A stretch of 38,201 nt of DNA from Deltaproteobacteria bacterium (GTDB lineage: Bacteria > UBA10199 > 2-02-FULL-44-16 > JAAZCA01): the NCBI GenBank assembly GCA_018645265.1, contig JABGOS010000068.1:1-38201 (forward strand). The letters run 5' to 3'. Positions 18,360 to 38,201 of the stretch are shown in pieces (position 1 is the first letter of the stretch; each line of letters begins with the position of its first letter). Position numbers and translations under genes: made by a program. The notes under the pieces were generated by a model. The model worked only from the letters and a program-made list of their open reading frames with translations, was not told where the DNA came from and made no database searches.

Positions 18360-18374
18360 CTACGATACTCACAT

Positions 18375-18719: not shown

Positions 18720-18774
18720 ATTGTGCCTCCGTAATTAGATACCCCGTGTACAGTGAATTATGCACCACGTTGGT

Positions 18775-20157: not shown

Positions 20158-20175
20158 CGTATACACCTCTCCCTG

Positions 20176-21606: not shown

Positions 21607-21645
21607 CCGCAAAGACCCTAATAGTTTTAATGTACGCTATTGACG

Positions 21646-23046
21646 TTAAACTTCAGCTTCCAACTTCTTTTTCTTTATTTTTTCAACCAGTGTAGTTCTA
21701 TTCAGTTTCAGCAATGTAGCAGCTTTGTTCTTATTACCACCAGTCTTCTTAAGCGCACCGATTATTAGTTGCGACTCAAAATCATCGACAGCTTTCTTAA
21801 ACGACATACCTGCATCCGGAATATCAAGATCACCCTGACCACCAGATGAAGATGCACTAAAGACATCTCCAACCGATCCCTCGACAACCTTGGGGGGGAG
21901 GTCCTCAAGCGATATTACACTTCCCGACTTGAGCACAGCTAACCTTTCCATCATATTTTCAAGCTCCCTAACATTTCCCGGCCAGGCATAACTACAGAGA
22001 ACATCCATAGTTTCCTTGTTAATATCCTGAACACACTTATTAGCGGTGTTACAGCTTCTGTCTATAAAGTGGTGGATGAGAAGTGGAATATCACCGCCTC
22101 TATCCCTGAGCGGGGGAACATGGATTGGAATGACATTCAATCTGTAGTACAGATCTTCCCGAAATGTACGTTCTTTGACGGAACGATCAAGGTCCTGATT
22201 TGTTGCAGCAATAATTCGAACATTAACCTGATGAGTATTCGTCGATCCAACCGGATCAAATCTTTGTTCCTGTAAAACCCTCAACACCTTAACCTGCAAC
22301 TTCGGGCTCATATCCCCAATCTCATCCAGGAAGATACTCCCTTGATCCGCAGCATCAAACTTGCCCATCCTAGTCGCAACAGCACCGGTAAAGGAACCCT
22401 TGATGTGCCCAAACAACTCGCTTTCAAGCAGCTCCTCCGGTATTGCACCACAGTTAACAGTTATAAGAGGCTTATCTTTTCTAGGACTATTATAATGTAT
22501 GGCTCTAGCTACAAGTTCCTTTCCCGTACCACTCTCTCCAGTGATCAACACAGTCGAATCACTTTCAGAAACCTTCTCTATAAGATCGAAAACATTGGCC
22601 ATTTCATCGCTGGAACCTATGATATTTTCGAAATGATATTTTTCCCTCAGCTGCTTCTTAAGCAACCTGTTCTCCTCCTTCAATTGGCTATGTTCCAGAG
22701 CAGTAGCAATGAGGGAAGCAATATCGTCGAGCTCGAATGGTTTGGTAAGATAGTGATAGGCGCCTGCCTTCATCGCCTCGACGGCGGAAGTTATCGTGCC
22801 AAATCCGGTAAGCACAATGGAAACCACTGAAGGCTGCTCTTTCTTCATCTTTCTGATTAGCTCTATACCATCAAGCTTTGGCATGACCAGGTCGACGAGA
22901 GCTAGATCAATCGTCTCAGTACTAAGGATTTTGGTAGCCTCCTCACCATCCTTGGCGGTAAAAACATCATACTTGAGACCAGTGAGAAAGCGCTCAAGAG
23001 CTTTGCGAATCGCGACCTCATCATCGACGATCATTATACGAGTCAT
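21646..23046 (-). CDS. NtrC-family sigma-54-dependent response regulator, probable kinase partner
   Basis: The 466-residue protein is a canonical NtrC-type regulator. Its receiver has Asp8/Asp9, Asp52 in LVDLVMPKLDG and LTKPFE; the AAA+ domain has GESGTGKE, GSFTGA, GSIFLDEIGD and REDLYYRLN; the C-terminal HTH is GGNKNKAATLLKLNRTTL. AAGGGG precedes the ATG. It follows the PAS histidine kinase gene by 57 bases on the same strand, so it is the most likely cognate regulator. Two more activators follow, which makes the phospho-relay order uncertain. Confidence 0.95.
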   Translation of the reverse strand: MTRIMIVDDEVAIRKALERFLTGLKYDVFTAKDGEEATKILSTETIDLALVDLVMPKLDGIELIRKMKKEQPSVVSIVLTGFGTITSAVEAMKAGAYHYLTKPFELDDIASLIATALEHSQLKEENRLLKKQLREKYHFENIIGSSDEMANVFDLIEKVSESDSTVLITGESGTGKELVARAIHYNSPRKDKPLITVNCGAIPEELLESELFGHIKGSFTGAVATRMGKFDAADQGSIFLDEIGDMSPKLQVKVLRVLQEQRFDPVGSTNTHQVNVRIIAATNQDLDRSVKERTFREDLYYRLNVIPIHVPPLRDRGGDIPLLIHHFIDRSCNTANKCVQDINKETMDVLCSYAWPGNVRELENMMERLAVLKSGSVISLEDLPPKVVEGSVGDVFSASSSGGQGDLDIPDAGMSFKKAVDDFESQLIIGALKKTGGNKNKAATLLKLNRTTLVEKIKKKKLEAEV

Positions 23047-23103
23047 TACCTACCCCTTTCTCTATGTGATCCCAATGCTAATTTTTGCGGGCCACAACAT
23101 GTT

Positions 23104-24270
23104 TTATTCTTCTATGAACGCTGGCAATCTTATGACAAATTCAGTACCACCATCCTCAACATCCTCGAACTCAATAGTGCCTCCATGCTCCTTAACTATC
23201 CTATAGCTAATGGAAAGCCCAAGTCCGGTACCCTTACCAGGGTCCTTCGTGGTAAAGAACGGATCAAATATCTGCTCTTTAATACGACTATTGATACCCG
23301 CACCTGTATCCCTAACACGAATTGCAACAACCCTTCCCCCATCCTCAACACCGGTCGTCACAGCGAGCTTACCACCCTTCTCCATGGCATGACATGCATT
23401 TGTCATCAGATTTAGAAATACCTGCTGAAGCCTATTGGATGCACCCATCACGTATGGAAGTCGTCCAGCACCATCAAAAAACAATTCCACATTGAGCGAC
23501 TGCATCTCCCTTCGAATAAAGGGAAATACCTTTTCCAGTATTACGTTAATATCGAGCGGAGAATGCTCCCCATCCTTGGATATCCTTGAAAAATCCAACA
23601 GATCGGCAACAATTTTTTTACACCGTCCTGCGGCTTCTTCAATAACCTCAATATCGTTAATCACATCCTTATTACCCTTAACATCCTTCTTGAGGAGCTG
23701 GGTAAAGGCTATTATCCCCCCCAGAGGATTGTTGATCTCATGCGCAACGCCGCCAGCAAGCATACCTATTGCTGCCATTTTCTCCTGCTGTATGATCTCC
23801 CTCTGCAGACGTCTCTCCTCCGTTATATCCCTGTAATACAACACGACCGACACATCCTCCACATTCTTCGTGTACGGATAGACGCTCACTTCAAACTCAC
23901 GCTTTGCAATTTTATTACATAGGGAGGAGGTAATCTGTTCGCCATTCACTATTGATTGCTCAAGTGGACATCCGTCGCACGGAACCTTCCTTCCAGCAAA
24001 AACTTCATAGCATCTCCTATTTACAACCTCACGAATATCTTTCGAGCAGACAGCTGACAGAGCAATATTAGCTCTCATGATTTTATAGTCCTGAGAAACG
24101 ATCTGAACTGGAGAGGTTATAGCATCAAATGTGGATTCCCACATGTATTTGCCACGCTCAAGTATGCCTACAAGTTTTTCCAGGGCCTCATTACTTTTGA
24201 CTAAAGATTTCAACTCCTTCTCTAAACTCTTATAATCCACTGCTGCTGCTCTCTTTGATCCTTTCGGCAT
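23104..24270 (-). CDS. Soluble PAS-domain histidine kinase with Cys-rich PAS motif
   Basis: The 388-residue kinase has a short coiled-coil start, a PAS domain (about 45-150), a HisKA dimerisation domain with phospho-accepting His177 in GGVAHEINNPLGG, and a HATPase domain with NLMTNACHA, DTGAGI, FFTTKDPGKGTGLGL. There is no transmembrane segment or signal peptide, so it is cytosolic. The PAS domain contains RRCYEVFAGRKVPCDGCP with Cys87, Cys98 and Cys101, a spacing that could hold a metal or respond to redox state. GAGGAG precedes the ATG. It is first in a run with three sigma-54 activators and is divergent from the VWA lipoprotein gene. Confidence 0.95.
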   Translation of the reverse strand: MPKGSKRAAAVDYKSLEKELKSLVKSNEALEKLVGILERGKYMWESTFDAITSPVQIVSQDYKIMRANIALSAVCSKDIREVVNRRCYEVFAGRKVPCDGCPLEQSIVNGEQITSSLCNKIAKREFEVSVYPYTKNVEDVSVVLYYRDITEERRLQREIIQQEKMAAIGMLAGGVAHEINNPLGGIIAFTQLLKKDVKGNKDVINDIEVIEEAAGRCKKIVADLLDFSRISKDGEHSPLDINVILEKVFPFIRREMQSLNVELFFDGAGRLPYVMGASNRLQQVFLNLMTNACHAMEKGGKLAVTTGVEDGGRVVAIRVRDTGAGINSRIKEQIFDPFFTTKDPGKGTGLGLSISYRIVKEHGGTIEFEDVEDGGTEFVIRLPAFIEE

Positions 24271-24462: not shown

Positions 24463-27066
24463 ATGGAGAAACGAAATTATATCAAGCTATTGGCCACTTT
24501 ACTCCTAGTAGCTTGCTTTTTTTCATTTGCCGGATGCAACAAAAAGGTAGATCAGAAAAAGGAAAAGACCAAATCCCCTACCGCTCAGGCGAAACAGGCC
24601 ATCAGAACCCCTGTTCTCATCGCGCCTGAACCTAAGGTAGAGGAAAAGAAACCACCGAAAAATGAAGATCAGGCGGTCGTTGATGCCAAGCCAAGGGGAC
24701 CAATCACCCTTCCACCCACAAATGAGCAACAGGCATCACAGGCTGCAGAAGCATCTCTAGCAACCCTTACCGGTCAAAAATCGCAAAAACCTGGGAACAC
24801 AGAGGACTTGCAGTCACTGGCTGCGCCAAGCGTCAAACCCGGAGAGATCGAGAAAGTACCCGAAGATGCCCTCCCGGTGCCATATCAGCCGAAGCTAGTT
24901 TCTGCGAAAACGAATATCGATATAATACTCGACGCATCCGGAAGCATGGCCGCGCCCCTTGGAGGCACATCTCAATCAAAATTTGAGATTATGAGGGAGG
25001 CTTTGTATGAAGTCATCTACGAGGCACTGCAGCAGCAGGCAGACTTTCCAAGGAACTTCGCCATAAGACTATTTGGATCTAAATCAAGCACTGATGATGA
25101 TAATTGTGATGATACCGAGCTCTTAGTCCCTATGGGTGAACCTGAGCTAGATATTATCAAGGGAATGCTGGACAGTGCGAAACCACAAGGGAAAAGCCCG
25201 ATCGCCTTGGCGATACGAAACGCTCAAAAGGATTTCCCATCGGATGGGCAGGCCGACAGGGTGATCGTCTTACTTGCTGATGGAGCAGATAACTGTGATG
25301 AAGATCCCTGCAGCGCAGCGAGAAAGATAGAACATGGTACGTTAGGTTACGTAATCAACACCATAGCTTTTGATGTGACTGGTGAGGACCAGAAAAAGCT
25401 GGAGTGCATCACAAAAACTGGTAGCGGAAAATTCTTCCTAGCAAGAAATGAAAACGAACTTAGAACAGCACTGAACGAAGCAATCAACTCAACAGTTCCT
25501 TACAATTTAAAGCTGTCGGCGCGCGCAGGTGCCACTCCACTTCCATTCAATCTCAAAGTGCTATCGTCAAAAACCCAAAGAGTGATAAAGAAGGACAAGA
25601 GCCTTGGCACTAAGATGTTAAGCCTTAAGCCCGGCACCTATGACATCCTGATAGAATATGCAGAATCCCCTGAAATGAAAAAACCCTCAAAGATACTTAA
25701 GGGGGTTGAAGTCATTCAATCGACGCGCGTCGAACAAACCGTCAATTTTGACCTAGGTCAGCTTTCCGTTTCAGCGGTAAGCAATGAAGGGAAACTCGTA
25801 CCTGCTAGATTTGAAATTATTCCGACGAAGGATGGAAAACAGACTGGAGCTCCAGCACTGTTGGAAATAGGAGCTGAATCCAAGAGCGTTTTTTTAACAC
25901 CTGGCTCATATGACGTCGTCGCAAATCTAGTGGAATTAACCCCTGATGATTTTTCGATAGTTGAAAAAAACGTAGCCGTCACAAAGGGTGGCACCATAGA
26001 TAAGCTCTTTAAATTTCAAAAAGGCACACTGACACTAAAAGCACTTACAACACAGGATGCTGAAACACCGTTTATATTTCAAGCCTACAAGGTTGGCAGG
26101 ACAAATATTCCTATCGCTAGCGGCGCATTTAACAAATCCGGTGGAAAGGTTCTTCTCGCACCGGGAACTTACGATATTCTCGCAATAGGCACCGATGACA
26201 GCATGGCGGCGAGTCCTAGAACAAGAGTAAAGGCTGTGGAAATCAAGGCTGCTGAGAACAAAGATGTGAGTATCAAGTTTGAAATGAGCAAACTCACGTT
26301 AGCAGCGGTCGATGGAAAGAATAACAAACTTCCTGCAGAATTCATAATAAGGGAACATGAGAGCGGCACAGAGATGACCAAGCTAAAGTCAGAATCCGGT
26401 TCTCCTGTATCGGTTCCTTTGCCTCCAGGAAATTATGATATAGTAGCTGTTAGTTTGAAATCCACTATCGAACCGAGACCTTCAGTCCCAGTACCTACGA
26501 TCAGCCTGACTGTAAAAAACCCGATCGAGAAAACGATTAAGTTTATCTTGGGAACACTTAGGCTCCGAGGAAGAAATGCAAAGGAACTCCCAATAAACAC
26601 GCAGTTTACAATTTATAAATCAGCTTCCGATGAAATCATATCCAGCGCTCCTCCATCTACCGATTGGGTGCTTTTCGACATAGCACCGGGCATTTATGAT
26701 GCGCTTGCTATTGACATAACCCCGAAGAAGGATCCAAAGCCGATGATATGGCTCAGAGATCTCAAGGTTGAAGATGGAAAGAGCTCGAGCCATGAAGCCA
26801 TCTACACAACTGGAAAAATTAAAGTCATAGGCAGAGGTCCAAACAACAAAATCATTGAATGCAAATTCAAGGTTTTTCAGTATGGCGCTGATAGGGAGTT
26901 GGTCAGCGGCGTAACCGGCGACGACTGGGAGATCTTCGAGATCGAGCCCGGCAAATATTATCTCGAAGCAAGTTACGTCGATGAAATCGAAGCCGTTACT
27001 CTCAAGAAATGGATCAACGTCACGGTAGGCGACAACGAAGTTGTCGAGCAGATTCTGAGATTTTAA
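24463..27066 (+). CDS. VWA-domain lipoprotein with six tandem PGxYD repeats
   Basis: The 867-residue protein has a lipoprotein signal with two candidate lipobox cysteines (LVAC at 18, FAGC at 25), then a Lys/Pro/Gln-rich linker to about 140. A von Willebrand A domain (about 147-345) follows, with MIDAS residues DASGS (157-161), a KSPIALAI threonine-loop counterpart and LADGADNCDEDPC. Six beta-sandwich-like repeats come next, each with a PGxYD-type turn at about residues 390, 480, 567, 655, 742 and 829, a spacing of 87-90. The ATG at 24463 is used; a TTG twelve bases earlier opens the frame. No Shine-Dalgarno is visible. The repeats resemble carboxypeptidase-regulatory or SpaA-type folds. A role as surface adhesin or scaffold is inference. 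Confidence 0.88.
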   Translation: MEKRNYIKLLATLLLVACFFSFAGCNKKVDQKKEKTKSPTAQAKQAIRTPVLIAPEPKVEEKKPPKNEDQAVVDAKPRGPITLPPTNEQQASQAAEASLATLTGQKSQKPGNTEDLQSLAAPSVKPGEIEKVPEDALPVPYQPKLVSAKTNIDIILDASGSMAAPLGGTSQSKFEIMREALYEVIYEALQQQADFPRNFAIRLFGSKSSTDDDNCDDTELLVPMGEPELDIIKGMLDSAKPQGKSPIALAIRNAQKDFPSDGQADRVIVLLADGADNCDEDPCSAARKIEHGTLGYVINTIAFDVTGEDQKKLECITKTGSGKFFLARNENELRTALNEAINSTVPYNLKLSARAGATPLPFNLKVLSSKTQRVIKKDKSLGTKMLSLKPGTYDILIEYAESPEMKKPSKILKGVEVIQSTRVEQTVNFDLGQLSVSAVSNEGKLVPARFEIIPTKDGKQTGAPALLEIGAESKSVFLTPGSYDVVANLVELTPDDFSIVEKNVAVTKGGTIDKLFKFQKGTLTLKALTTQDAETPFIFQAYKVGRTNIPIASGAFNKSGGKVLLAPGTYDILAIGTDDSMAASPRTRVKAVEIKAAENKDVSIKFEMSKLTLAAVDGKNNKLPAEFIIREHESGTEMTKLKSESGSPVSVPLPPGNYDIVAVSLKSTIEPRPSVPVPTISLTVKNPIEKTIKFILGTLRLRGRNAKELPINTQFTIYKSASDEIISSAPPSTDWVLFDIAPGIYDALAIDITPKKDPKPMIWLRDLKVEDGKSSSHEAIYTTGKIKVIGRGPNNKIIECKFKVFQYGADRELVSGVTGDDWEIFEIEPGKYYLEASYVDEIEAVTLKKWINVTVGDNEVVEQILRF

Positions 27067-27085
27067 TTAAGAGTTGTAATGCGGT

Positions 27086-30000
27086 TCAAGGAAGCCTGAA
27101 TATTTTTTCTTCACCACTATAGTGCAAATATTGCTCGATGAAAGCTTTTATCGCTATATCAATAGAGTTGCTCTCCTGATCAAAATTCAGCGACAGACCA
27201 TCAGGCATGAATGCTATTTTCCGTAAACCCAACTTGGATAACATACTATCTGAAGAATTCTGAAAGGCCATTTCCTGTGGAATTGTTATCGCGAATGCAC
27301 TCTCTTTAGGGGTGTACTGTGCAATTGCAGTCATAAGTTGATCTGCCAAATTGGATATTATCCGCTTTGATGGAATAGTCGTAACATTACTTCCCTCAAT
27401 GGGGGTGATAACAAGCCTGGACCTATCTGCTAACGTTCTAATCTTGATAGAGTACCCAGAATCACTCTCTGCATCACCTTGCACTTCGCTTAATTCGAGA
27501 CCTAATAACAACGATACATCAAAACTCACTATAGGTCCGTTCCAAGGATTTGAATCATCTGCACGCATGGAGAGGATAATCGGATCGCCGTTTGCATCAA
27601 ATTTAATCGGTAGATTGCCATAGTCATCAGTAGGCTTCGTCTTATCCACTTCAATTGCATAGAACGACATCTCCAATCCCCCAAGTTGCAGTTCTATGAT
27701 CGTACCCTCAGGAACATCATATGTAGCACCAATGTCAGTTCCACTACTCCTTGGAACTACAGGAAGCTCACTGGCTGTAGTGACAGATATTCTGGGTGCC
27801 AATGCACGACTGCCTCTGAGAGCCATAATTAGAGGCTGCTTTGCAGGAAAATAATCATAAGAGGTAAGCGAGGAGCCCAAGAGCTCCATAACCCTCGGCC
27901 TGACATAACACAATGTAGGAGGTTTATCCTTCACACCCGGGATAGGCTCAAAGGCATCACACTCCTTTACAAAATCGAATCCCATGCTCTTGAAAAACGG
28001 TTCATGAATATCAAAATCAAGAAGACCCTTAACATTATATCCATCACCATGTGCAATCGCCGCATACATGATTGCACCTATGGCATCTAGCGATATGCCT
28101 GCTCCGAGATCGAACCCCTTTAGATCTGAGGCCGTTCCCACCCTGTCGACTTCTTTCGGGTCAATTACGACACCTGCGCTGGACACCTTATATTGATCGG
28201 GAGTGTCCTTGAAATAGTCATGGTCACCTGCAGCTAAGTTTATCCCGAGTGATACACCCTGCGGCGTAAAATTCGTGTCTTCGCTCAATCCTACCCAAAG
28301 TGGGAGAACCATAGATGGCAATATCTTCATGAGCATATTATCAGCGCAATCTGAACCATCCTGACAACCAATAGGGATAGGAATCTTAAAATAATCTTTC
28401 ATAGCACCCGTAGCTGACGACGAGCCTGAGCAATAGATCATTGAATTGATCGAATCCAGTATGGCCTCCTTCACCGCCACTGTTTGGGCGTTGATGGAAT
28501 TAAAAGCCTTACATACTTTCTTCACTGACCCCGCAGCTGCTGCTACATCACACCAGACGAAGTGACCCCAAGGGGAAGCATTACCTATGAAGTTATCCGG
28601 AATGAGCGATGCGGGTTTATGAGTACAATAACTCGAGCCCTTATACGCACAATCATCGTGAGGGCTTGAAACGAGCATCAGTTTTTCACCATCGTCGTTC
28701 TCTTGAATAAGGAGTCTGATATCGATCTTGGCTTCATCAAAACCAATGATCAAAGGAAGTGGTTCTTTGTCACCAATTCCATCGCCATCACTATCAGGTG
28801 ATATATTGATTCCCGCCCTCACATCATCAACAATTAACGAAAGATCTATCTGGTTATCCTTAATCGAGAAATCACCTATCATTATACTACCTAGGGTTGG
28901 CATACCATTTATCGAAATCGCAAATTGACCGAGGCCCCCTTCCACATCACACTTAGGTATGGAGATAATTCCAACATCATCTTTTCCCTCAGCTTCATCG
29001 GCCTCATTATCAGAAATATCCACATCGCCATCCGATGGGTTTGCAATCTTTTCAAGCATACCTACAAGAAATTCTGAAAATTCGTCTGATGAGAAGAAAT
29101 TATTTACGAAGGGGATTAGAATCGAGTCCAACATAGAATCAGATAGTGAGACATCTAGCGCCCCCTCCACACCTACACGACCGACCTCATTATCATAAGG
29201 ACTTAATACCTTACCCCAACCGAAGGTCCAGGCGAACTGCTCCATACCATCCGGCGTATCGAGAGTAGCCACATTGATCCCAACCCTTGGAGTCAACACT
29301 ACTGCAAATTCACCACTAGCATCTGCACATACCTCATGAGGTTCCTTCCTGTTAAACTGTAATGTGACGCAGGAAAGATTTCCGCCGAGCTTAAATCTCC
29401 AGTCAATATCTGGATATTCTCCGGAGTCATACGCTGGCATGGGGGATGGAGAGATAAATTCCAATGCAGCTGCACCACGCGACGTGCTAAATTTTACATT
29501 CTTTACGCTTGGGCAGCTCCCCTCGACCGCAGCATTGCACGCTGAAATGGTCATACTATTATCACCTGCACCAGCAGGAACACCTATGATAAACCTACCC
29601 TGCCCTCCCTGTTCAACTGTCGTTTCACATGTGATGATTTTAGAATCACCCTTCTGATCCTGCATTAAGTTGTCTATGGAAACCTTCACTCCTCCTGTAG
29701 AGGCCCCTATAAAATCACAATACTGGCAATCTCCCAGCAGATCTACCGTGACCATAACCATCTTATCATCTATCACCTGCTCCGTTCGTATATCCGGGTT
29801 ATAGGAGACTTTTGAATCATTCAAAACCGGCGCAACAACTTTACTGCTTCTAACCTTCTTCTCGACAGATTCGCCTGACAACCTGCTCGCGGATATGGAT
29901 ATCGTATGGGGTCCTACGGAGTTCATCGGGATACCTACGGAATAACGTCCCTTTGCATCTAAACAGAATTCAGCCTTGGGTGATATCTCATCCCAACAGC

Positions 30001-30466
30001 CTGAACTCTTTGGATTCGTTGTATTCACATATTGAATCTTTTTGGTGTATTCATTCTGAACGGCCACGCGGATACTGGCTAATACTGAGCCCTGTCTATC
30101 CATCGTACCTCTTATAAGCAAAGAATCGTCCGCCACACTTCCTGGTGGGGTGTCGATACACAGAAAACCGGAACCAATCTCACATCGCATCACAGCAGGT
30201 TCTTGAGGTACCTTACACATGCCAGGCAGCCTACCCTTCACGACTTCTTCTTCCTCCTGCTCCGTTTCCTCCTCAGTCTCTTCTTCACTTTCATCTGATA
30301 TGGGGGAATACTCATCACCTCTGGCATCATTCACGACAGATCTATCCATCCACCATGACGCAATTCGTGATACAACGCCGGAAGGCTCCGCGCGCACCTC
30401 ATGGCATGTAAATATTAGAACGATACAAGCCAAAATAGATGCAACTATTTTGCATTTAATAGACAT
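27086..30466 (-). CDS. Very large exported protein with three Cys-bearing Ig-like modules, function unknown
   Basis: I do not recognise this 1126-residue protein. It has a Sec signal (MSIKCK, hydrophobic to about 21, cleavage likely after VRA at 26) and a Glu-rich linker (about 58-74). Three modules about 105 residues apart each contain a Cys strand then a Gly/Val strand: FCLDAKGRYSVGIP (near 167), ITCETT with GRFIIGVP (near 277) and EVCADASGEFAVVL (near 379). Near 560 DSDGDGIGDKEP looks like a calcium-binding (thrombospondin-3-like) loop. The C-terminal half is long, beta-rich and has scattered Cys pairs. The ATG at 30466 is preferred over a TTG two codons earlier. No Shine-Dalgarno is visible. 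It converges with the VWA gene 19 bases away. Confidence 0.8.
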   Translation of the reverse strand: MSIKCKIVASILACIVLIFTCHEVRAEPSGVVSRIASWWMDRSVVNDARGDEYSPISDESEEETEEETEQEEEEVVKGRLPGMCKVPQEPAVMRCEIGSGFLCIDTPPGSVADDSLLIRGTMDRQGSVLASIRVAVQNEYTKKIQYVNTTNPKSSGCWDEISPKAEFCLDAKGRYSVGIPMNSVGPHTISISASRLSGESVEKKVRSSKVVAPVLNDSKVSYNPDIRTEQVIDDKMVMVTVDLLGDCQYCDFIGASTGGVKVSIDNLMQDQKGDSKIITCETTVEQGGQGRFIIGVPAGAGDNSMTISACNAAVEGSCPSVKNVKFSTSRGAAALEFISPSPMPAYDSGEYPDIDWRFKLGGNLSCVTLQFNRKEPHEVCADASGEFAVVLTPRVGINVATLDTPDGMEQFAWTFGWGKVLSPYDNEVGRVGVEGALDVSLSDSMLDSILIPFVNNFFSSDEFSEFLVGMLEKIANPSDGDVDISDNEADEAEGKDDVGIISIPKCDVEGGLGQFAISINGMPTLGSIMIGDFSIKDNQIDLSLIVDDVRAGINISPDSDGDGIGDKEPLPLIIGFDEAKIDIRLLIQENDDGEKLMLVSSPHDDCAYKGSSYCTHKPASLIPDNFIGNASPWGHFVWCDVAAAAGSVKKVCKAFNSINAQTVAVKEAILDSINSMIYCSGSSSATGAMKDYFKIPIPIGCQDGSDCADNMLMKILPSMVLPLWVGLSEDTNFTPQGVSLGINLAAGDHDYFKDTPDQYKVSSAGVVIDPKEVDRVGTASDLKGFDLGAGISLDAIGAIMYAAIAHGDGYNVKGLLDFDIHEPFFKSMGFDFVKECDAFEPIPGVKDKPPTLCYVRPRVMELLGSSLTSYDYFPAKQPLIMALRGSRALAPRISVTTASELPVVPRSSGTDIGATYDVPEGTIIELQLGGLEMSFYAIEVDKTKPTDDYGNLPIKFDANGDPIILSMRADDSNPWNGPIVSFDVSLLLGLELSEVQGDAESDSGYSIKIRTLADRSRLVITPIEGSNVTTIPSKRIISNLADQLMTAIAQYTPKESAFAITIPQEMAFQNSSDSMLSKLGLRKIAFMPDGLSLNFDQESNSIDIAIKAFIEQYLHYSGEEKIFRLP

Positions 30467-30572
30467 ATTCAATTTTTTCTTAATCCAAATATCCTCTTAT
30501 TTATAATGAATGTCATATTGTCGGCCTATACATAAAAAAGTTGCGATAAAAAAGGCATTGCATGTCATATCG

Positions 30573-30603
30573 ATGACGCACCGGGCTGGAACAGTGCATA
30601 TTG
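30573..30603. repeat. Short element shared with 34514-34537, copy 1
   Basis: ATGACGC, then a seven-base insert relative to copy 2, then TGGAACAGTGCATATTG. The inner 19 bases at 30585-30603 match 34519-34537 at 17 positions. It lies in the 297-bp region between 30467 and 30763 that holds no gene, about 160 bases upstream of the 1248-residue lipoprotein gene. Confidence 0.5.
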
Positions 30604-30690
30604 CTGTATTTACGGGTAATTACGAGAATTTACCACATCCACTAAAATACAAATAAAGAGCAACTTTTTTACCACCTCGCCGATATCAGT

Positions 30691-30724
30691 ACATGCTTCT
30701 GAGCATGTGGAGAGATCCATGCTC
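30691..30724 (+). promoter_or_regulatory. Three-arm alternative hairpins in the leader of the 1248-residue lipoprotein gene
   Basis: ACATGCT (30691-30697) pairs perfectly with AGCATGT (30702-30708) around a 4-base loop. GAGCATG (30701-30707) also pairs perfectly with CATGCTC (30718-30724). The middle arm can thus join either neighbour but not both. The structure sits 40 bases before the start codon, with no Shine-Dalgarno between. It resembles an attenuator or protein-binding leader, but this is unproven. Confidence 0.4.
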
Positions 30725-30763
30725 AGATGTTATTGAACAATTAATTGAGTTGAATAAAATAAA

Positions 30764-33700
30764 ATGAAAACAATTAAATTCATAGCTGTGCTTATAGCGG
30801 TTATAATATCCTCCTCCGGATGCGGTGGACAGGATTGGACACCTGTATATTTTCAACCACCGGATCAGGATGATGAAACTTCCAAGTCTCCCAGCGAAAG
30901 TCTTGGCGGCAGAAAGTGCACGGTTCAATTTACATCTAAACTTTGTGTGCAGATAAAGGGCGATAATATTGAAGCAGGATTGCAAGAGGGTGAGGAACTC
31001 TGCGGTGAGGTTCCTCCCTTTCCAATCCACATCAACGGCTCAATAGCTTCTATTGAAGGATCAGAATTCCCCGATATAGACTTTGAAGGTGGTGGCCTTC
31101 CGGCGCCCATCACATTGAATGCGAGAGGTGACAGCGATGGTTCCACCAATACTGGTGAGGGCCCCGCAGATGGATCTGGTAATATTACTGTAAACGATTT
31201 CTCATTTTATATAGTGGCCCTTGGGATTGTTGGTGAAGTTCCAGGCCTCAGCCTGACAACCGGAAGTACGGATGAGTTACCTCACCTGCCTTCAATAAGC
31301 GGATCTCCCCCTGATGCATCGGGTGCAATGACGATGGTCATTGGAACAGTACTTGGCTCCATCATTCCAGCCGCTGATAAATATCTAAAGGGCGCATCCC
31401 TCTCTGCAACGATGACAGGTTCAATATCTCCACCTCTCACTGAGTGTGGAGGCGAAGCTGAAATAAATATTGAAGTTAATAAGCTCATCATAGACCAGGA
31501 TGGTCAACAGACCGAGTCTCCAATCCCTGAAGGGAAATACATGGAGATCTCTAACGGCACCTTTATAGCCGAAAGCGATTCGGATATCGGTGATCGCTTC
31601 GAGAGCACAGAGAAATTCAGAGCAACGAATGTCGGCTCTCAGGCTATTCGCATTAATGTACCGCCACAGAAGGGACCTTTTTACATAACCTCGGTGAACT
31701 CTCTTTCAACAACCTTAAATCCACAACAATCTATAGTGATGAACGTTGCTTTTCGACCAAAGCTCGATAATTCAGAGCCCGGAGATATCAGTGAACCTTT
31801 ATCCATAGGACCCGATCAGTTTTTCATGACCGCATCAGCGCTATCTAAAGCTGGAGATGGATCTATCAATCTCGTTGATGATGATGGCGCCGTGGATCAA
31901 CCCGATGTAGATAAAGTTGAGGTCGGATCCTCCGCTTTGCCAGCTAATACAGAAAAGGCCTTCTTTCTTTGCAAGGAAATTGAATGTAACGAAACTAAAC
32001 TCATCACCTCATGCAGGGAGTGTGACGATCCATCTTCACAACCCTGTGATCTCCTTCCTGTATCCACGGATGGTGGACCAATTGGTGAAGTCGATGCAGA
32101 CTGTAAGATTGTCAACCCAGATGCCGTCCCTCTTTATACAATAGATCTAAAGGGAAATGCAGGCGTGTCGCTTGATGCACAAAAACAGGTCTTGGCCATC
32201 AGAAACGACGGTGTCTCAGATCTTAATATCGCTAAAATAGAGATTGAGGAAATCAAAGGCAGTAAATCAATTGGACAGTTCTCGATACCTGATGGAGCCA
32301 TATTCATTGCGACGAGCTTCAAGGATGTCAAAGATAGAGTGAACAAGGCCCTTGATGGAAAGGGAGACTTGCAAGGAACAAAACTGCCCTTAACTCTAAA
32401 ACCGTATCAAAAGGGATATCAGGAGAATTCATTATATGTAGTTGTCACATATCAGCCTAACGACCTTATAGGAAGTGATGGCCAGAGCGCAGGAATAGGC
32501 AGCAAGGTCAAGGATAAAGCCACTCTCAAGGTAACAACGGATGATGGTGAAATTGAGACTATCGTAACAGGCACCACGACAATTCAAGAAACTCCAGCAC
32601 TGGAACTCTATTTTAAAACATCTGTTGGCGCTAGACATGTCATTGATGGCGGAGAATTTCCCCTTAAGGGAGTTACCGCAGAAACCGAGGACCTGGCAGT
32701 TCCCATGTTCCTGAGAACTGCAGACACATCGCAGAACATCTTGAGAGTAATCTCTATCACGATCGACGGTGATGACGAAAAGATGTTTCAGTGGCTCGAC
32801 ACAGAGGACAAAATCGCCGCTGTAGAACCAGCTACAGGCAAAGGTATGCGATGCTCCATTCCAATCATTGACGAATCCACAGGAGATATGATTGACGAAT
32901 CTTTCGAATTAAAACCGGTATCCCTATCACCAAATGGATTTGATCTACCGCCTGGTGCTTATACAACGGATAGTATGCCACTCTTTGGATGCTTGAATTT
33001 CCATCGCGACGATGCAGAGGCTTTCAACAAAAGAATCTTTAATGCCAATATGACCGTTGTAGCACAAGAACTTGATGCCACGGGAAACCCTGCGAAAAAT
33101 CCGGATGGCAGTTACAGACAGACCACGCTTACCGCAATACTCAAGGCGGCAATCAATCCACGTTCAGGAAGACTGGTAATGAGAATTACGCAGACGATGT
33201 CTGGGATCCTCAATCCAAAATTTCCTGGAATGTCTTCAATTACATCGAAGAAAGATCGTCAATATCTCGTTGATAGTGGCAAGATTAAGGAGACCGACTT
33301 CGAGGTTTTTCTTGGAGCGATAATACTAGATCCTTTCGATGAAATGACGATAGATACATTGGATGGAGAAAAGCACTTAACTGTTCCAAACGACGGACTA
33401 ACCGCAATCTTCAGAGCACTAGACACCCATCCAGTCGATGATGACTATGAAAATGAGTGGCTCTTTGATTACGCAAGCCTGCTTCACGATGCCAATCGTC
33501 CTGAAGGAAGCAGAGGAATATTTGAAGATTATCCAAATGTCCCCCCTGATACGTCGGCTAATGGATGGCGTATATTCACCGGAACGCTTTCCTATCCAGG
33601 CCCCCTACCACCGCCTGGCACGAAGAACCCTGAAATGCCATCGGACTGTGCTGTGGTCAATCCATGTGATCCTGAGGGATTGAAAAAATTCACGAAGTCT

Positions 33701-34510
33701 GGCGTAGGGTCTGATGGAAAAGGTGCATGCGCTTTTTTCTATGCTAGCGGAGGTAGGTACGACAGTCCCGCATTTCATACTGAAAGTGAAATGCCCGGCG
33801 GTGAATATGAGAATCTATGCAATCGTATAAATGAACCTCAGACCCTGCATGATCTTGATATAGGCTACTCCTCAGTGGATGGAGCGATCACCTTTGAAGA
33901 AGTTGGCCTTAGATTCTTTGGGCCGACCTATTTTCACAACCCTGGTGGCCCACTTGGAAACTATCCTCCTATGGATGAAGTCTTTCACATGTCATTCACA
34001 ACAGAGGTACTAAAACCGCAGAGAAGTCCTGAGGATTACAACGTTCTACCTGATGAAAATATTGATCTATCCAAGAGCGAATTTAAGATAAACCTAGATG
34101 ATCCCAAGTTGAATACGGTGCCTATATGTAAGAACACCGTTAAGGATAAAGTCTTCGGAGGGCAGCGATACAGCGGTTGGAGGTATCTCGAAGGACTTCT
34201 CTTCAAGGACGAGGAAGCAACTATTCCGGCTGGATGTCCTGAGGAGGACAATGACTACACTGGAGGCTCAGCCTATCTAAGAGGACGCGATGTTGATCAT
34301 GAAACCGGTGTGTTTACCCTCGTCACGAGTGCAAAATTTGGATCAAACGAGGAGCTTTCATTCGCATTCAAGGATGTCATGATCTTTGTCGTAATGAATG
34401 GATGGCTCTGTGATCCCATGGGAAGTGAAGAAGATTTTGAGGGAAGCTTATGCTTCGATGAAAAATTTAACGAGCGTGACGCGATAGGTCAGATATCGCT
34501 CACCGATTGA
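30764..34510 (+). CDS. Very large lipoprotein with two HYDIN/ASH-like modules, function unknown
   Basis: The 1248-residue protein has a lipobox SSGC (Cys20) after MKTIK and a hydrophobic stretch, so it should be lipid-anchored. Two segments look like HYDIN/ASH-type immunoglobulin modules: about 285-333 (FRATNVGSQAIRI ... LNPQQSIVMNVAFRP) and about 477-565 (LAIRNDGVSDLNI ... YVVVTYQPND). The rest contains many acidic loops and at least 16 cysteines, with a Cys-rich patch near 405-430 (FLCKEIECNE, SCRECDD). No enzyme motif is visible. The ATG lacks a Shine-Dalgarno; upstream are alternative hairpins. It is divergent from the 1126-residue gene and 83 bases before the next plus-strand gene. Surface location is likely; function unknown. 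Confidence 0.82.
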   Translation: MKTIKFIAVLIAVIISSSGCGGQDWTPVYFQPPDQDDETSKSPSESLGGRKCTVQFTSKLCVQIKGDNIEAGLQEGEELCGEVPPFPIHINGSIASIEGSEFPDIDFEGGGLPAPITLNARGDSDGSTNTGEGPADGSGNITVNDFSFYIVALGIVGEVPGLSLTTGSTDELPHLPSISGSPPDASGAMTMVIGTVLGSIIPAADKYLKGASLSATMTGSISPPLTECGGEAEINIEVNKLIIDQDGQQTESPIPEGKYMEISNGTFIAESDSDIGDRFESTEKFRATNVGSQAIRINVPPQKGPFYITSVNSLSTTLNPQQSIVMNVAFRPKLDNSEPGDISEPLSIGPDQFFMTASALSKAGDGSINLVDDDGAVDQPDVDKVEVGSSALPANTEKAFFLCKEIECNETKLITSCRECDDPSSQPCDLLPVSTDGGPIGEVDADCKIVNPDAVPLYTIDLKGNAGVSLDAQKQVLAIRNDGVSDLNIAKIEIEEIKGSKSIGQFSIPDGAIFIATSFKDVKDRVNKALDGKGDLQGTKLPLTLKPYQKGYQENSLYVVVTYQPNDLIGSDGQSAGIGSKVKDKATLKVTTDDGEIETIVTGTTTIQETPALELYFKTSVGARHVIDGGEFPLKGVTAETEDLAVPMFLRTADTSQNILRVISITIDGDDEKMFQWLDTEDKIAAVEPATGKGMRCSIPIIDESTGDMIDESFELKPVSLSPNGFDLPPGAYTTDSMPLFGCLNFHRDDAEAFNKRIFNANMTVVAQELDATGNPAKNPDGSYRQTTLTAILKAAINPRSGRLVMRITQTMSGILNPKFPGMSSITSKKDRQYLVDSGKIKETDFEVFLGAIILDPFDEMTIDTLDGEKHLTVPNDGLTAIFRALDTHPVDDDYENEWLFDYASLLHDANRPEGSRGIFEDYPNVPPDTSANGWRIFTGTLSYPGPLPPPGTKNPEMPSDCAVVNPCDPEGLKKFTKSGVGSDGKGACAFFYASGGRYDSPAFHTESEMPGGEYENLCNRINEPQTLHDLDIGYSSVDGAITFEEVGLRFFGPTYFHNPGGPLGNYPPMDEVFHMSFTTEVLKPQRSPEDYNVLPDENIDLSKSEFKINLDDPKLNTVPICKNTVKDKVFGGQRYSGWRYLEGLLFKDEEATIPAGCPEEDNDYTGGSAYLRGRDVDHETGVFTLVTSAKFGSNEELSFAFKDVMIFVVMNGWLCDPMGSEEDFEGSLCFDEKFNERDAIGQISLTD

Positions 34511-34513
34511 TGC

Positions 34514-34537
34514 ATGACGCTGGTACAGTGCGTATTG
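34514..34537. repeat. Short element shared with 30573-30603, copy 2
   Basis: ATGACGC runs directly into TGGTACAGTGCGTATTG, lacking the seven-base insert of copy 1. It lies four bases after the stop of the 1248-residue gene and 57 bases before the next start codon. Confidence 0.5.
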
Positions 34538-34593
34538 TTTCGGCAAGCATAAGCTGCAAGTGGTAACACGTAATTCAAACTGAATGCTATTTT

Positions 34594-36162
34594 ATGGGCG
34601 ATAGAATATTTCCAGATTTTCAACTGAAGGACCCTACCGAAGCTCTTACATTCTGGGAAGGCGTCGGTGTGTCCGGCGAGTTCAAGGTGGGCATTCCCAT
34701 AAAAACGCCTATCTCTGAAGGTAAAGGATTGGTACTGGGAGGCGCATTAAAACTTGAAATGCCAGACACGTTCAATGGAACGAACAATATATATCTCCAA
34801 TACCTCTCAGGCACGTCTGAAGGCAATTCAGCTGGAACTGACAACAAACAATGGTCTTTCCAGCTAGCTGCTGGGACAAAGAAAGGTTTTTTTTCCTACT
34901 TCGATAAGGATGGCAATTTTAGAATTAGACTTTCCCAGGAAAGCAGACCTCTTTGGGGTATAGGCGAAACTACGATAGGCAATCCAAACAACGCATATTC
35001 CAGCAGCAGCCATACTCTCTCTATAGGAACTGAAACCGGGGCCACGGCAGATTTCATGATAACGAGCCGCCTGAGAGCAAGTATCGGAGTTGGTGGCTAC
35101 TACGGAGTAGATTTTGCTGGCAGCGGCTCACCGTATAACCGACTCAAGCTAGCTATCATGTTGAACGCTGAGATCGCATGGTCTTCCGCTTCCCTGTCAT
35201 CAGATGGAAACGCCGACGTTTCAGTAAGCCCGCTTACGGATGTCTTTGAGTTTTTAAAACTCATACATGGCGGCGTATTCAGATACTCCTTAAATGCAAC
35301 TCTATCCGATCAGCAGGAGATACTCGGCAATTATGGAATTGAGGCCGGCGAGGGTGGCCCTGGACCATTTCGCAACTTACGTTATTTCAAATTTGCCTCC
35401 TCCCTACTTGGAGGAATTGGAGATTCTACTGGCACCTATCTTCGATCCAAAGCTTATTGGGGATACTTTGCAGGTCTGATGGCTAGAGGAGTAACCTTTT
35501 CCATTCTCGATGGTGATGCCGGAAGAACAGGCGCCATTGGAGATTTTCTGGGAGCAGCTCGCCTCGGTTCATATGCTATAGCGGGAATGGAGTCGGTTTC
35601 GAAGAGAAGAGCCCTATCCGATGATGATAAGATTCTTCGTGAAGGATGGGCGAACTTCGGCTCCTACTTACTCAATACAGTCGCAACCGGCATAGGACAG
35701 GGCACAGGCTACGAACCGCTTGCATCGGCTGGTGCCAGCGCGAACATGTCGATAGCCTTCCAACCCGGATTAGTATCAGACTTGACGAAGAGGATGGATA
35801 TCACAGCAGGAGCAACTGTGGTTAACCCACGCTTTGCACTGAACCTCCATAGGGATTGGAAGAAACTTCCGCTATTCACTTCCATGACAGTTTTTCTCGG
35901 AGGAAGTGACAAGGAGATTGAGATTCATTCCTCGATGGGTGCTCAATACAAGTGGACATATCTAAGGGTGTTGGCAGGTTTGGACAACGATCTATTCTTC
36001 GGCGATGACGCTGGTGCACATGTGGGTGCTATGGCTGGCCTAGATCTTATAATACCATTCGATGGAAAAGATAGCGGGGCTGGAATTTCTGCTGGTGTGC
36101 GATGTTTTGTGAACTTTCAGGGAGATTATGATTGTGCAGTGTTGGGTGGAGCAACCTTCTAG
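34594..36162 (+). CDS. Beta-rich protein of unknown function, possible outer-membrane barrel lacking a visible signal peptide
   Basis: I do not recognise this 522-residue protein. It is rich in Gly, Ser, Ala and aromatic residues with alternating hydrophobic strands (for example LRASIGVGGYYGVDF, LYLQYLSG-like and AGLDLIIPF near the end) and ends in AVLGGATF, a terminal Phe as in many outer-membrane barrels. Yet the N-terminus MGDRIFPDFQLKDP has no signal peptide, the frame is closed by a TAA 30 bases upstream, and no Shine-Dalgarno precedes the ATG. Either the start region has been remodelled or frameshifted, or the protein is not exported by Sec. It follows the 1248-residue lipoprotein gene by 83 bases and may share its transcript. 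It converges with nadD. Confidence 0.72.
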   Translation: MGDRIFPDFQLKDPTEALTFWEGVGVSGEFKVGIPIKTPISEGKGLVLGGALKLEMPDTFNGTNNIYLQYLSGTSEGNSAGTDNKQWSFQLAAGTKKGFFSYFDKDGNFRIRLSQESRPLWGIGETTIGNPNNAYSSSSHTLSIGTETGATADFMITSRLRASIGVGGYYGVDFAGSGSPYNRLKLAIMLNAEIAWSSASLSSDGNADVSVSPLTDVFEFLKLIHGGVFRYSLNATLSDQQEILGNYGIEAGEGGPGPFRNLRYFKFASSLLGGIGDSTGTYLRSKAYWGYFAGLMARGVTFSILDGDAGRTGAIGDFLGAARLGSYAIAGMESVSKRRALSDDDKILREGWANFGSYLLNTVATGIGQGTGYEPLASAGASANMSIAFQPGLVSDLTKRMDITAGATVVNPRFALNLHRDWKKLPLFTSMTVFLGGSDKEIEIHSSMGAQYKWTYLRVLAGLDNDLFFGDDAGAHVGAMAGLDLIIPFDGKDSGAGISAGVRCFVNFQGDYDCAVLGGATF

Positions 36163-36163
36163 T

Positions 36164-36730
36164 CTAATTGTCATCCTGATTTCTGTATAAACTTTTCGTA
36201 ATTATATATATAGCAACCTCACCCTCAACATGTTTATGGAATGATTCACCCTTCTCTATTTTTTTTCTAATTTCGGTAGAACTGATATCTGGTATGGTTG
36301 AAGCTTCACCTCTCGGCACCTCAATTATCTCTACGATCTCACGAATCTTATCGAATTGATACCAGTCCGGTGCCTCACGTCTTACATCGGTGCCAGTAAC
36401 CAGATAAAAACGACAATCTGGATTCTTCTTCCTGAGATGCTCTATTGTTCTAATTGTATGGCTGACACCACCCAACTCTTTCTCGGTATGCAGAACTTTT
36501 ATGGAGAGCATAAGTCTCCCCAACGCCAGTTTAAGCATTTTCAATCTATGTTCGAATTTCTCCAGCACCTTGCTGAATGGATGGTTGTAACAGGGGATGA
36601 CCCAAACCTCATCCACCAACCCCTTCGCTAAGAGCCACTTGCAAATAGCGGTATGGCCGATATGAGGCGGGTTAAAAGAACCCCCAAATATTGCTATTCT
36701 GCGTTTCTGTTTCTGCTCTCTAAAAACCAT
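36164..36730 (-). CDS. nadD: Nicotinate-nucleotide adenylyltransferase
   Basis: NadD joins nicotinate mononucleotide and ATP to give deamido-NAD. The 188-residue protein, slightly short for the family, carries the nucleotidyltransferase signature FGGSFNPPHIGH with His23 and His26, GTDVRREAPDW (the GTD...W motif) and ISSTEIR (149-155), the ATP-binding motif. About ten basic residues precede the first strand. The start at 36730 is the only reasonable ATG. It ends one base from the convergent beta-rich gene and is divergent from the NAD kinase gene, 50 bases away, so both may share a promoter region; I saw no clear boxes there. Confidence 0.95.
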   Translation of the reverse strand: MVFREQKQKRRIAIFGGSFNPPHIGHTAICKWLLAKGLVDEVWVIPCYNHPFSKVLEKFEHRLKMLKLALGRLMLSIKVLHTEKELGGVSHTIRTIEHLRKKNPDCRFYLVTGTDVRREAPDWYQFDKIREIVEIIEVPRGEASTIPDISSTEIRKKIEKGESFHKHVEGEVAIYIITKSLYRNQDDN

Positions 36731-36780
36731 GATCCCAGCCTTGCTAAGTTTATAATAACCTATTAATATACATAAGAATT

Positions 36781-37590
36781 ATGAAACTCAACCGCGTTCT
36801 TATAATATTTAAAAGTTTGAACGACGTCATCAAAACGAACCCTGATGATGCTGATGCCCCTTCTGACCATGAGGGGACCCTGACACAGATACAGGATGAC
36901 CTAGATGAACTAGGCATTCCGAGTCGCGTTATAGGCAGGGATAATATTAAGAGGGGGTTTAAGGGTGACCTTTTGATTACCCTGGGCGGTGATGGCACCT
37001 TCCTGGCGGCTTCCCATATAGCAGGGGATATCCCTCTTCTGGGCGTAAATTCCATGCCAGATCATTCCGTGGGTTTCTTTTGTGCTTCAAATGCATCGAA
37101 TTTCAAGGATGCGATATTGGATATATTGAAAGGGAGGCTGAAGTTAAGAAAATTGCCTCGCATGGAAATATCTATCGATGGTAAGGTCCTACCCTGTCTT
37201 GCACTAAACGATGTTCTATTCGGAAGATCCTCCCCTGCGGAGATGGCGAGATATGAGCTCAGAATTGGGAAACGCTGTGAACACCAGAAGAGCTCGGGCG
37301 TATGGATATCTACAGGTGCTGGATCAACCGGAGGCATCCACTCCTCTGGCGGCAAACCGATGAACATCGAATCCAAATACCTGCAGTATATGGTTAGGGA
37401 ACCTTATGCCCACCAAGCCAAGGTGTATAGCATACTTAATGGTCTGGTTAGGGGGGGTCAGAAGATCGAGATCATCCCAGAGAGAGATGCAGTCATCTAC
37501 GTCGATGGTCCGAACATAGTCTATACTGTGAGGGAAGGACAGAAACTCAGCACAAGAATCTCAGGTAAAACGTTAAAGGTATTCCTTTAA
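36781..37590 (+). CDS. nadK: NAD kinase, divergent type
   Basis: NAD kinase makes NADP from NAD. The 269-residue protein has the catalytic GGDGT (69-73) with Asp71, the NAD-binding LNDVLFG (Asn143, Asp144) and SGVWISTGAGSTGG (173-185) followed by SSGG. The last motif departs from the common TPTGSTAYxxSAGG of bacterial enzymes, with Gly-Ala replacing Pro-Thr and Gly-Gly replacing Ala-Tyr, so this belongs to a divergent branch. An N-terminal acidic stretch (NPDDADAPSDHEG) replaces the usual first helix loop. It is divergent from nadD, which makes the NAD precursor, so the two form a small NAD(P) locus. Confidence 0.9.
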   Translation: MKLNRVLIIFKSLNDVIKTNPDDADAPSDHEGTLTQIQDDLDELGIPSRVIGRDNIKRGFKGDLLITLGGDGTFLAASHIAGDIPLLGVNSMPDHSVGFFCASNASNFKDAILDILKGRLKLRKLPRMEISIDGKVLPCLALNDVLFGRSSPAEMARYELRIGKRCEHQKSSGVWISTGAGSTGGIHSSGGKPMNIESKYLQYMVREPYAHQAKVYSILNGLVRGGQKIEIIPERDAVIYVDGPNIVYTVREGQKLSTRISGKTLKVFL

Positions 37591-37607
37591 AAGGTTTTAT
37601 ACACTTT

Positions 37608-38201
37608 TTAGGAATTGATCGCTTTTTCGTCGTTATCGGATGTAGCCAGCTGTCTTGCAATTCTCTCTATAGGATCAATCGATGGCACTTCAGCGTTCGC
37701 TGATTTCGTGGCACCCAATTCCTTAAGTTTCCTCGCACCCGGCATCACCCTGTTCTCCCAAGAGCCCACAGCCTTGTTGAAGGAGTCTATAGCCTTGTCG
37801 AGACCAGATCCCACTCGAGAGAAATGATCTGAAAATGTCACAAAGCGCTCAAAAAGATCCTTACCGGCTTCTGAGATCCTCTGTGAATTCTCGGCAAGTT
37901 GCTCATGCTGCCAGCCCATAGCCACCACCCTTAGCAAGGCTATTAAAGTCGTAGGAGTGGATAGGATTACCTTACTCTTCATTCCGTCTTCGATGAGATC
38001 ACGATCCTGTTCAAGCGCTGCTGCGAAAAAAGATTCGCCTGGTAGGAATAGAACTACAAAGTCTGGCGCATTATCGAACTGTGACCAGTAGGATTTCTGC
38101 CCAAGTTTTCGCATATGCTCCCTGACAGCCTGAGCGTGCGCCGTCAATTGCATCACCCTGGAGTTTTCGTCAGGCGACTCCAGAGCTTCCATGTAAGCGT
38201 T
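37608..38201 (-). CDS. rmuC: DNA recombination protein RmuC, C-terminal part (runs off the right edge)
   Basis: RmuC-family proteins are predicted nuclease-related factors that limit recombination at inverted repeats. The visible 197 residues carry the conserved core: HMRKLGQKSYWSQF, PDFVVLFLPGESFF, ALEQDRDLIE and STPTTLIALLRVVAMGW, then a helical tail. An ATG at 38192 could be mistaken for the start, but the frame continues upstream with NAY-MEAL, matching the DAYLEAL segment of RmuC, so the gene extends past 38201. The N-terminal membrane anchor and coiled coil are outside the window. It ends 17 bases from the convergent NAD kinase gene. Confidence 0.94.
   Translation of the reverse strand, partial: NAYMEALESPDENSRVMQLTAHAQAVREHMRKLGQKSYWSQFDNAPDFVVLFLPGESFFAAALEQDRDLIEDGMKSKVILSTPTTLIALLRVVAMGWQHEQLAENSQRISEAGKDLFERFVTFSDHFSRVGSGLDKAIDSFNKAVGSWENRVMPGARKLKELGATKSANAEVPSIDPIERIARQLATSDNDEKAINS

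What the first reader, a model, noticed from the sequence alone, without database searches (positions are those of the whole stretch)
24463..36162. Locus of four large, unrecognised envelope/surface proteins: candidate undescribed system
Seen: within 11.7 kb lie a VWA lipoprotein (867 aa), an exported 1126-aa protein, a 1248-aa lipoprotein and a 522-aa beta-rich protein. All have low-complexity or modular repeats, none has an enzyme motif. Inference: they could form one cell-surface assembly (adhesion, gliding, predation or an outer-membrane complex), with the VWA protein as a metal-dependent binder. Two are on plus, one on minus between them, so they are not one operon.
Basis: partly seen in the sequence, partly recalled or inferred. 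Interest (0 to 1): 0.7.

Follow-up and report, generated by a model that had tools for sequence, protein, structure and literature searches.

The report
Conserved lipid-binding envelope module beside T3SS
Four unknown genes in an uncultured bacterium are a real, conserved gene set that encodes a BPI-like lipid-binding protein, two large lipoproteins and an outer-membrane-type barrel with no export signal; the set sits next to type III secretion genes in several relatives, so it may be an undescribed surface part of a secretin-less type III secretion system.

Summary
The four ORFs are real, and they stay together in relatives. P2 (minus strand) and P3 are divergent neighbours in about 20 genomes of the same class. 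A P4 follows P3 in 19 of 19 loci where that junction is present. The VWA gene is the usual but less constant partner. A broad P2 profile reaches 32 of 46 genomes in the class.

The proteins are not featureless. P2 is Sec-exported, with three Ig-like domains followed by a tandem BPI/LBP/CETP-type TULIP lipid-binding unit (Foldseek top four hits; I predicted this before the search). P4 is an outer-membrane-type beta-barrel with a helical insert, and no homologue has a signal peptide, yet 12 of 19 end in F/W like a BAM signal.

The locus abuts different type III secretion genes in three families: an LcrH/SycD-SctT cluster, the SctJ cluster, and SctU. It or its VWA gene abuts a TolC-MlaC-phosphodiesterase cluster in several others. 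The class almost universally has a non-flagellar T3SS, and every secretin I traced belongs to another system.

Best reading (about 0.4): an envelope lipid-handling and attachment module of a secretin-less T3SS, with P4 exported by that T3SS. The T3SS export step is inferred, not shown.

The parts
24463..27066 (+). VWA lipoprotein (P1), 867 aa; signal peptide with lipobox FAGC; VWA domain about residues 154-340; then serial beta-sandwich repeats; C-terminus ...ILRF
   Evidence: MIDAS DASGS at residue 157 and conserved C-terminal LRF
24922..25482 (+). VWA domain of P1
   Evidence: Pfam VWA_2 E 1.8e-5, below gathering score; homologous stretch 136-344 in many class members
27086..30466 (-). P2, Sec-exported 1126-aa Cys-rich protein: Ig-like domains + tandem TULIP
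29204..30184 (-). three Ig/FN3-like domains of P2 (residues about 95-421)
   Evidence: AF2 secondary structure, Glucodextran_B-type Ig hits in 12 of 17 homologues, Foldseek hits to SiiE/contactin Ig domains
27089..29176 (-). BPI/LBP/CETP-like tandem TULIP of P2 (residues about 431-1126)
   Evidence: Foldseek PDB ranks 1-4 are BPI (1bp1 E 2.7e-12, 1ewf), LBP 4m4d and CETP 2obd, about 700 aligned columns
30764..34510 (+). P3, 1248-aa Cys-rich lipoprotein, the best conserved of the four (mean column identity 55%)
31583..31762 (+). ASH/HYDIN-like Ig domain in P3 (residues 274-333)
   Evidence: Pfam PF22544 E 0.0014 in the window, best 3.9e-5, in 7 of 13 homologues
34594..36162 (+). P4, 522-aa outer-membrane-type beta-barrel without a signal peptide; ends in ...GGATF
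35230..35760 (+). helical insert of P4 between 8 N-terminal and 8 C-terminal strands (residues 213-389)
   Evidence: AF2 model, mean pLDDT 71.7
23104..24270 (-). histidine kinase, divergent from VWA; a homologue adjoins or lies near the VWA gene in families f1, f2, f5, f8, f15, f17 (probable regulator of the locus)

Best explanation
The four genes are one conserved envelope module of an uncultured delta-proteobacterium-like phylum. P2 is a periplasmic or surface lipid-binding protein: Ig-like arms carrying a BPI-type double TULIP tube (fold supported by a model; lipid binding inferred from the fold). P3 and the VWA protein are lipoproteins that anchor it and, through the VWA MIDAS, bind a partner (inferred). 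P4 is an outer-membrane-type barrel made without a Sec signal. I propose that P4 is exported by the non-flagellar type III secretion system that nearly every member of the class encodes, and is then inserted either in the cell's own outer membrane through its BAM-like C-terminus or in a contacted cell. P2, P3 and VWA would organise lipids or attachment at that site. In a T3SS that lacks a secretin of its own, P4 could supply part of the missing outer-membrane passage. Shown by computation: conservation, co-localisation, TULIP-like and barrel-like models, no signal peptide, T3SS and MlaC/TolC adjacency, no T3SS secretin found. Inferred: T3SS export of P4, lipid cargo, role at cell contact.
For: (1) P2 and P3 are divergent neighbours and P4 follows P3 directly in all 19 loci where the junction is present; gap -4 to +9 nt in 12 or more of them, frame variable. 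A broad P2 profile finds 32 of 46 class genomes. In all six further P2 loci opened from that search, a large ORF without a signal peptide lies beside or near P2 and in each of these loci at least one such ORF ends in F. (2) P2: BPI, LBP and CETP are the top four of 350,542 PDB chains. (3) P4: 0 of 16 homologues pass a hydrophobic N-terminus cut that 8/8 TolC-like and 5/5 MlaC proteins of the same loci pass. Model strands match OmpG, OmpA, NspA, OmpX. 12 of 19 end in F/W against 5 of 151 background ORFs. (4) T3SS links by different genes: the SctT-F14-LcrH-F15-LcrH cassette abuts P4 in f5 (G010, G017; F14/LcrH genes also next to P4 in G021, G026, G036); the LcrH-SctJ cluster abuts P2 in G038; SctU lies upstream of the operon in G022. 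(5) SctV in 44/46 genomes, flagellin in 4/46. Secretins examined lie in T2SS, T4P-like or Tad clusters. (6) TolC-MlaC-PDE adjoins or nearly adjoins P2/P3 in G019, G024 and G029 (TolC only in G014) and the VWA/histidine-kinase side in f5, f8, f15, f17.
Against: In the window's own family (f1), and in f2, f3, f8, f15 and G028, the locus is not beside T3SS genes; it lies by nadD, NAD kinase and rmuC or elsewhere. T3SS is nearly universal in the class, so co-occurrence alone carries no information, and not every T3SS-bearing genome has a detectable P2. LcrH/SycD matches are below NCBIfam's curated cut-off. The barrel-like ORFs of distant families are not demonstrably homologous to P4. AF2 models rest on 8 and 11 sequences with mean pLDDT 65 and 72, and whole-length TM-scores are low. 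No secretion signal for T3SS can be proved from sequence.
Confidence: 0.4

Rival explanations
1. An envelope lipid-traffic system independent of the T3SS. P2 (TULIP), MlaC, the TolC-like protein and the phosphodiesterase move or modify a lipid or glycolipid at the outer membrane. P4 is an accessory barrel exported by an unknown route; the T3SS adjacency is incidental gene order.
For: BPI-like fold of P2. TolC-MlaC-PDE is at or near P2/P3 in G019, G024 and G029, TolC in G014, and on the VWA/kinase side in f5, f8, f15, f17. In f1-f3 there is no T3SS neighbour.
Against: Does not explain a conserved signal-less barrel. T3SS adjacency arose in three families through three different T3SS genes.
Confidence: 0.27
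2. An adhesion or contact apparatus in which Ig-like and VWA proteins bind another cell, analogous to the Tad/Kil plus needleless T3SS* contact machinery of Myxococcus. P2's TULIP would bind the target's LPS as BPI does, and P4 would be delivered into the target membrane.
For: Ig-like, VWA and BPI-like modules; secretin-less T3SS as in Myxococcales (PMC3459982) and T3SS* acting with a Tad pilus in predation (PMC12075869); a Tad cluster with secretin in the window's genome.
Against: No evidence on lifestyle. The C-terminal aromatic of P4 suggests the cell's own BAM rather than a foreign membrane.
Confidence: 0.15
3. P4 is exported by a type I route through the neighbouring TolC-like protein, which also uses substrates without N-terminal signals.
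For: OEP (TolC) genes close to P2 or VWA in several families.
Against: No ABC transporter or membrane-fusion gene recognised beside the OEP, MlaC and PDE genes in the mapped loci.
Confidence: 0.08
4. Four unrelated surface genes kept together by chance, with P4 a cytosolic protein.
For: No signal peptide on P4; VWA is separated from the rest in some families.
Against: P2-P3-P4 adjacency holds across several families at 30-60% identity while flanking genes change; barrel-like model and C-terminal F/W enrichment.
Confidence: 0.05

Closest known systems
BPI/LBP/CETP TULIP proteins, and bacterial DUF4403 (pseudodimeric BPI-like TULIP, PMC6791001)
   Same: tandem TULIP layout, about 700 aligned columns to BPI; exported
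   Different: P2 adds three Ig-like domains, is Cys-rich, and gives no Pfam match to BPI or DUF4403 families; it stands next to a lipoprotein and a signal-less barrel
Non-flagellar type III secretion systems, especially the secretin-less Myxococcales type / T3SS*
   Same: Sct core present, no flagellin, no SctC found; part of the class T3SS cluster adjoins the module in some families
   Different: P2, P3, P4 and VWA are not known T3SS components; the class cluster keeps an LcrH-F15-LcrH translocon-like cassette, whereas Abby & Rocha found no translocon homologues in the Myxococcales type
Outer-membrane beta-barrels (OmpG, OmpA/OmpX, NspA)
   Same: predicted up-down barrel strands and C-terminal aromatic
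   Different: no Sec signal in any homologue; about 175-residue helical insert
CglB adventurous-gliding VWA lipoprotein (NF033757)
   Same: VWA lipoprotein, weak local match (E 0.00095 over 47 residues)
   Different: 18 bits against a cut-off of 200; other repeats and neighbours differ

Membership tests
BPI-type TULIP | two tubular lipid-binding domains in tandem | tested here: met
   Foldseek ranks 1-4 are BPI, BPI, LBP, CETP, from a model of pLDDT 65
BPI-type TULIP | sequence match to LBP_BPI_CETP or DUF4403 families | tested here: not met
   none among Pfam hits of 17 homologues at E 0.5; I therefore call it TULIP-like by fold, not a member of these families
BPI-type TULIP | binds lipid | not testable with these tools
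   needs purified protein and lipid-binding assay
Non-flagellar T3SS (the class's apparatus) | Sct core genes J, L, N, R, T, U, V without flagellin | tested here: met
   SctJ not found in the window's own fragmented genome
Non-flagellar T3SS (the class's apparatus) | dedicated SctC secretin | tested here: not met
   secretins examined lie in T2SS, T4P-like or Tad clusters
Non-flagellar T3SS (the class's apparatus) | P4 is secreted by it | not testable with these tools
   only adjacency and lack of a signal peptide
Outer-membrane beta-barrel | barrel fold | tested here: met
   16 strands in the model; Foldseek hits are OM barrels; closure of one 16-strand barrel versus two smaller ones not settled
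Outer-membrane beta-barrel | Sec signal peptide | tested here: not met
   0 of 19 homologues
Outer-membrane beta-barrel | C-terminal aromatic BAM signal | tested here: met
   12 of 19 end F/W, background 5 of 151
CglB/gliding | match above NCBIfam cut-off | tested here: not met
   18.3 of 200 bits
MIDAS-type VWA | DxSxS motif | tested here: met
   DASGS at residue 157 and in 18 of 21 homologues

The most novel reading that the evidence does not exclude
A class of outer-membrane barrels delivered by a type III export apparatus instead of Sec, acting with a bacterial BPI-like lipid carrier and surface lipoproteins to build the outer-membrane part of a secretin-less T3SS.
Probability: 0.22. Interest if true: 0.92.

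Novelty: new variant of a known kind. Interest (0 to 1): 0.66.

Why it matters
How secretin-less type III systems such as those of Myxococcales and this phylum get anything past the outer membrane is open; Abby & Rocha doubted that the Myxococcales ones secrete at all (PMC3459982). This module offers concrete, testable candidates. An outer-membrane barrel that bypasses Sec would break a general rule. A Sec-exported, Ig-fused, BPI-like double TULIP adds a family to the short list of known bacterial TULIPs and may be a bacterial counterpart of an animal LPS-binding protein.

Tried and rejected
Programmed readthrough or frameshift fusion of P3 and P4: rejected, the frame relation varies. A missed start or signal peptide of P4: rejected, the open frame extends only about 9 codons upstream in the window and no homologue has a hydrophobic start. 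Flagellar explanation for SctV: rejected, flagellin in only 4 of 46. A weakly scoring secretin that tracked the close P2/P3 genomes looked like SctC, but its gene neighbours in the window's genome look like Tad genes. Homology of distant signal-less barrels to P4: not shown by hhalign. PDB sequence search with P3 and P2 profiles: nothing useful. Sigma-54 promoter search: chance level. First genome scan with single P3: nothing. Rfam and tRNA: none.
Full report
WHAT IS THERE. The four ORFs are confirmed at the stated coordinates, with strand order VWA +, P2 -, P3 +, P4 +. Pfam and NCBIfam give only sub-threshold hits: VWA in the first, and an ASH/HYDIN-like Ig domain in P3. The window is a contig of a 2.24-Mb, 95.6% complete, 161-contig genome. 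Named relatives found by P3 are 'Deltaproteobacteria' MAGs from groundwater and similar sites, such as RIFCSPHIGHO2_01_FULL_43_49 and CG11_47_16. I recall these as GTDB phylum UBA10199 but did not verify that.

CONSERVATION. In 60 relatives P2 is found in 20 genomes, P3 in 22 (three of them short weak N-terminal matches), full-length or near-full-length VWA in about 21, and P4 by direct search in 4. Reading the loci shows more: P2 and P3 are divergent neighbours, and a P4 lies directly downstream of P3 in all 19 loci where the P3 3' end is present. Sixteen of these P4 were linked by sequence; three were added by position. The gap is -4 to +9 nt in most of them and the frame varies, so P4 is a separate, closely spaced gene and not a frameshift extension. 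VWA is convergent with P2 in families f1, f2, f3 and f5, next to P4 in two f15 genomes, and elsewhere or on another contig in others. P3 is the best conserved (55% mean column identity, many invariant Cys). P4 is the fastest evolving (about 16% identity between families). A P2 profile widened with remote members finds 32 of 46 genomes of the class. P2 neighbourhoods of the remote families again hold a large exported or lipoprotein gene in most cases and large ORFs without a signal peptide, often ending in F. Those ORFs are not demonstrably homologous to P4 (tested on five of them).

P2. From its sequence pattern I expected Ig domains plus a TULIP before running any structure search. The AF2 model (8 sequences, pLDDT 65, pTM 0.56) against 350,542 PDB chains returned BPI (E 2.7e-12), BPI, LBP and CETP as the first four hits, then Ig-rich proteins. 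Whole-length TM-scores are low (0.16-0.22 on the query), as expected for a multidomain model of modest confidence, so I claim the fold class and not details. DUF4403 is the known bacterial pseudodimeric BPI relative (PMC6791001); P2 has no Pfam match to it.

P4. The AF2 model (11 sequences, pLDDT 72, pTM 0.64) has 8 strands, a helical insert and 8 strands. Foldseek hits are outer-membrane barrels: OmpG, OmpA, NspA, OmpX, autotransporters. Whether this is one 16-strand barrel or two smaller ones is unsettled. None of 16 clustered members has a hydrophobic segment in the first 60 residues (max 1.09), while 8/8 TolC-like and 5/5 MlaC proteins from the same loci do (2.03-2.83); P4 looks like cytosolic NadD and LcrH in this respect. 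Yet 12 of 19 end in F/W (background 5 of 151; members are related, so the binomial P overstates).

TYPE III SECRETION. SctV is in 44/46 class genomes, SctJ/FliF-type genes in 40/46, flagellin in 4/46. The cluster order is SctD-like FHA, two small genes, LcrH, SctJ, SctK, L, N, O, P, Q, FliO, R, S, T, F14, LcrH, F15, LcrH (K, O, P, Q labels are by position and weak similarity). J, L, N, R, T, U and LcrH/SycD were matched by NCBIfam models, the LcrH, J, L and U hits below the curated cut-offs. In family f5, P4-P3-P2-VWA directly follows the second LcrH. In G038 (f17) P2 lies about 0.5 kb from the LcrH-SctJ end of the cluster. In G022 (f12) SctU sits upstream of the divergent operon. These are three lineages with three different T3SS genes. 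In the window's genome SctV (next to secA) and the F14-LcrH-F15-LcrH cassette are on other contigs. The three secretins of the window's genome lie in T2SS, T4P-like and Tad-like surroundings, and the only secretin of G011, G014, G018, G022 and G030 lies in a T2SS-type cluster (assigned by neighbouring genes read by eye). So no dedicated SctC was found, as in Myxococcales (PMC3459982), whose needleless T3SS* works with a Tad pilus in predation (PMC12075869).

LIPID LINK. A TolC-like OEP, MlaC and phosphodiesterase cluster adjoins or nearly adjoins P2/P3 in G019, G024 and G029 (OEP alone in G014), and lies on the VWA side with a histidine kinase, and in f5 TatC, in f5, f8, f15 and f17. Together with a BPI-like P2 this makes lipid handling plausible independently of the T3SS.

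JUDGEMENT. Shown: a conserved, class-wide envelope module; TULIP-like P2; barrel-like, signal-less P4; recurrent adjacency to T3SS and MlaC/TolC genes. Inferred: that P4 leaves the cytosol through the T3SS, that P2 carries lipid, and that the module serves the secretin-less T3SS. T3SS adjacency is seen in three families only and is absent in the window's own, so confidence is 0.4. An independent lipid-traffic role is the main rival.

Noticed in passing
window 16693-24270: Dense regulatory island beside the locus: histidine kinase, three tandem sigma-54 activators, STAS, anti-sigma-type ATPase and GAF-SpoIIE phosphatase (partner-switching set).
   Followed up: partly
window 10085-11650 (-): 521-aa lipoprotein with no Pfam match, not part of the conserved module.
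   Followed up: no
window 2887-3822 (+): 311-aa exported acidic protein with no Pfam match.
   Followed up: no
window 36164-38201: nadD, NAD kinase and rmuC flank the locus in families f1 and f3.
   Followed up: partly
L215:3490-7048 (own genome C29): F14-LcrH-F15-LcrH cassette, conserved through the class; F14 and F15 have no family and are candidate T3SS tip/translocon proteins.
   Followed up: partly
L173, L272 (G012): One genome carries two P2 homologues in separate loci, one flanked by pairs of related signal-less ORFs.
   Followed up: no
L190-L191 and relatives L192, L195, L196, L199, L202: SctV is stably close to secA (often next to an ArgJ-like gene) in the class, far from the main T3SS cluster in many genomes.
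   Followed up: no
L190:2826-5235: Tandem similar lipoprotein genes; part of one reads as N in the held sequence.
   Followed up: no
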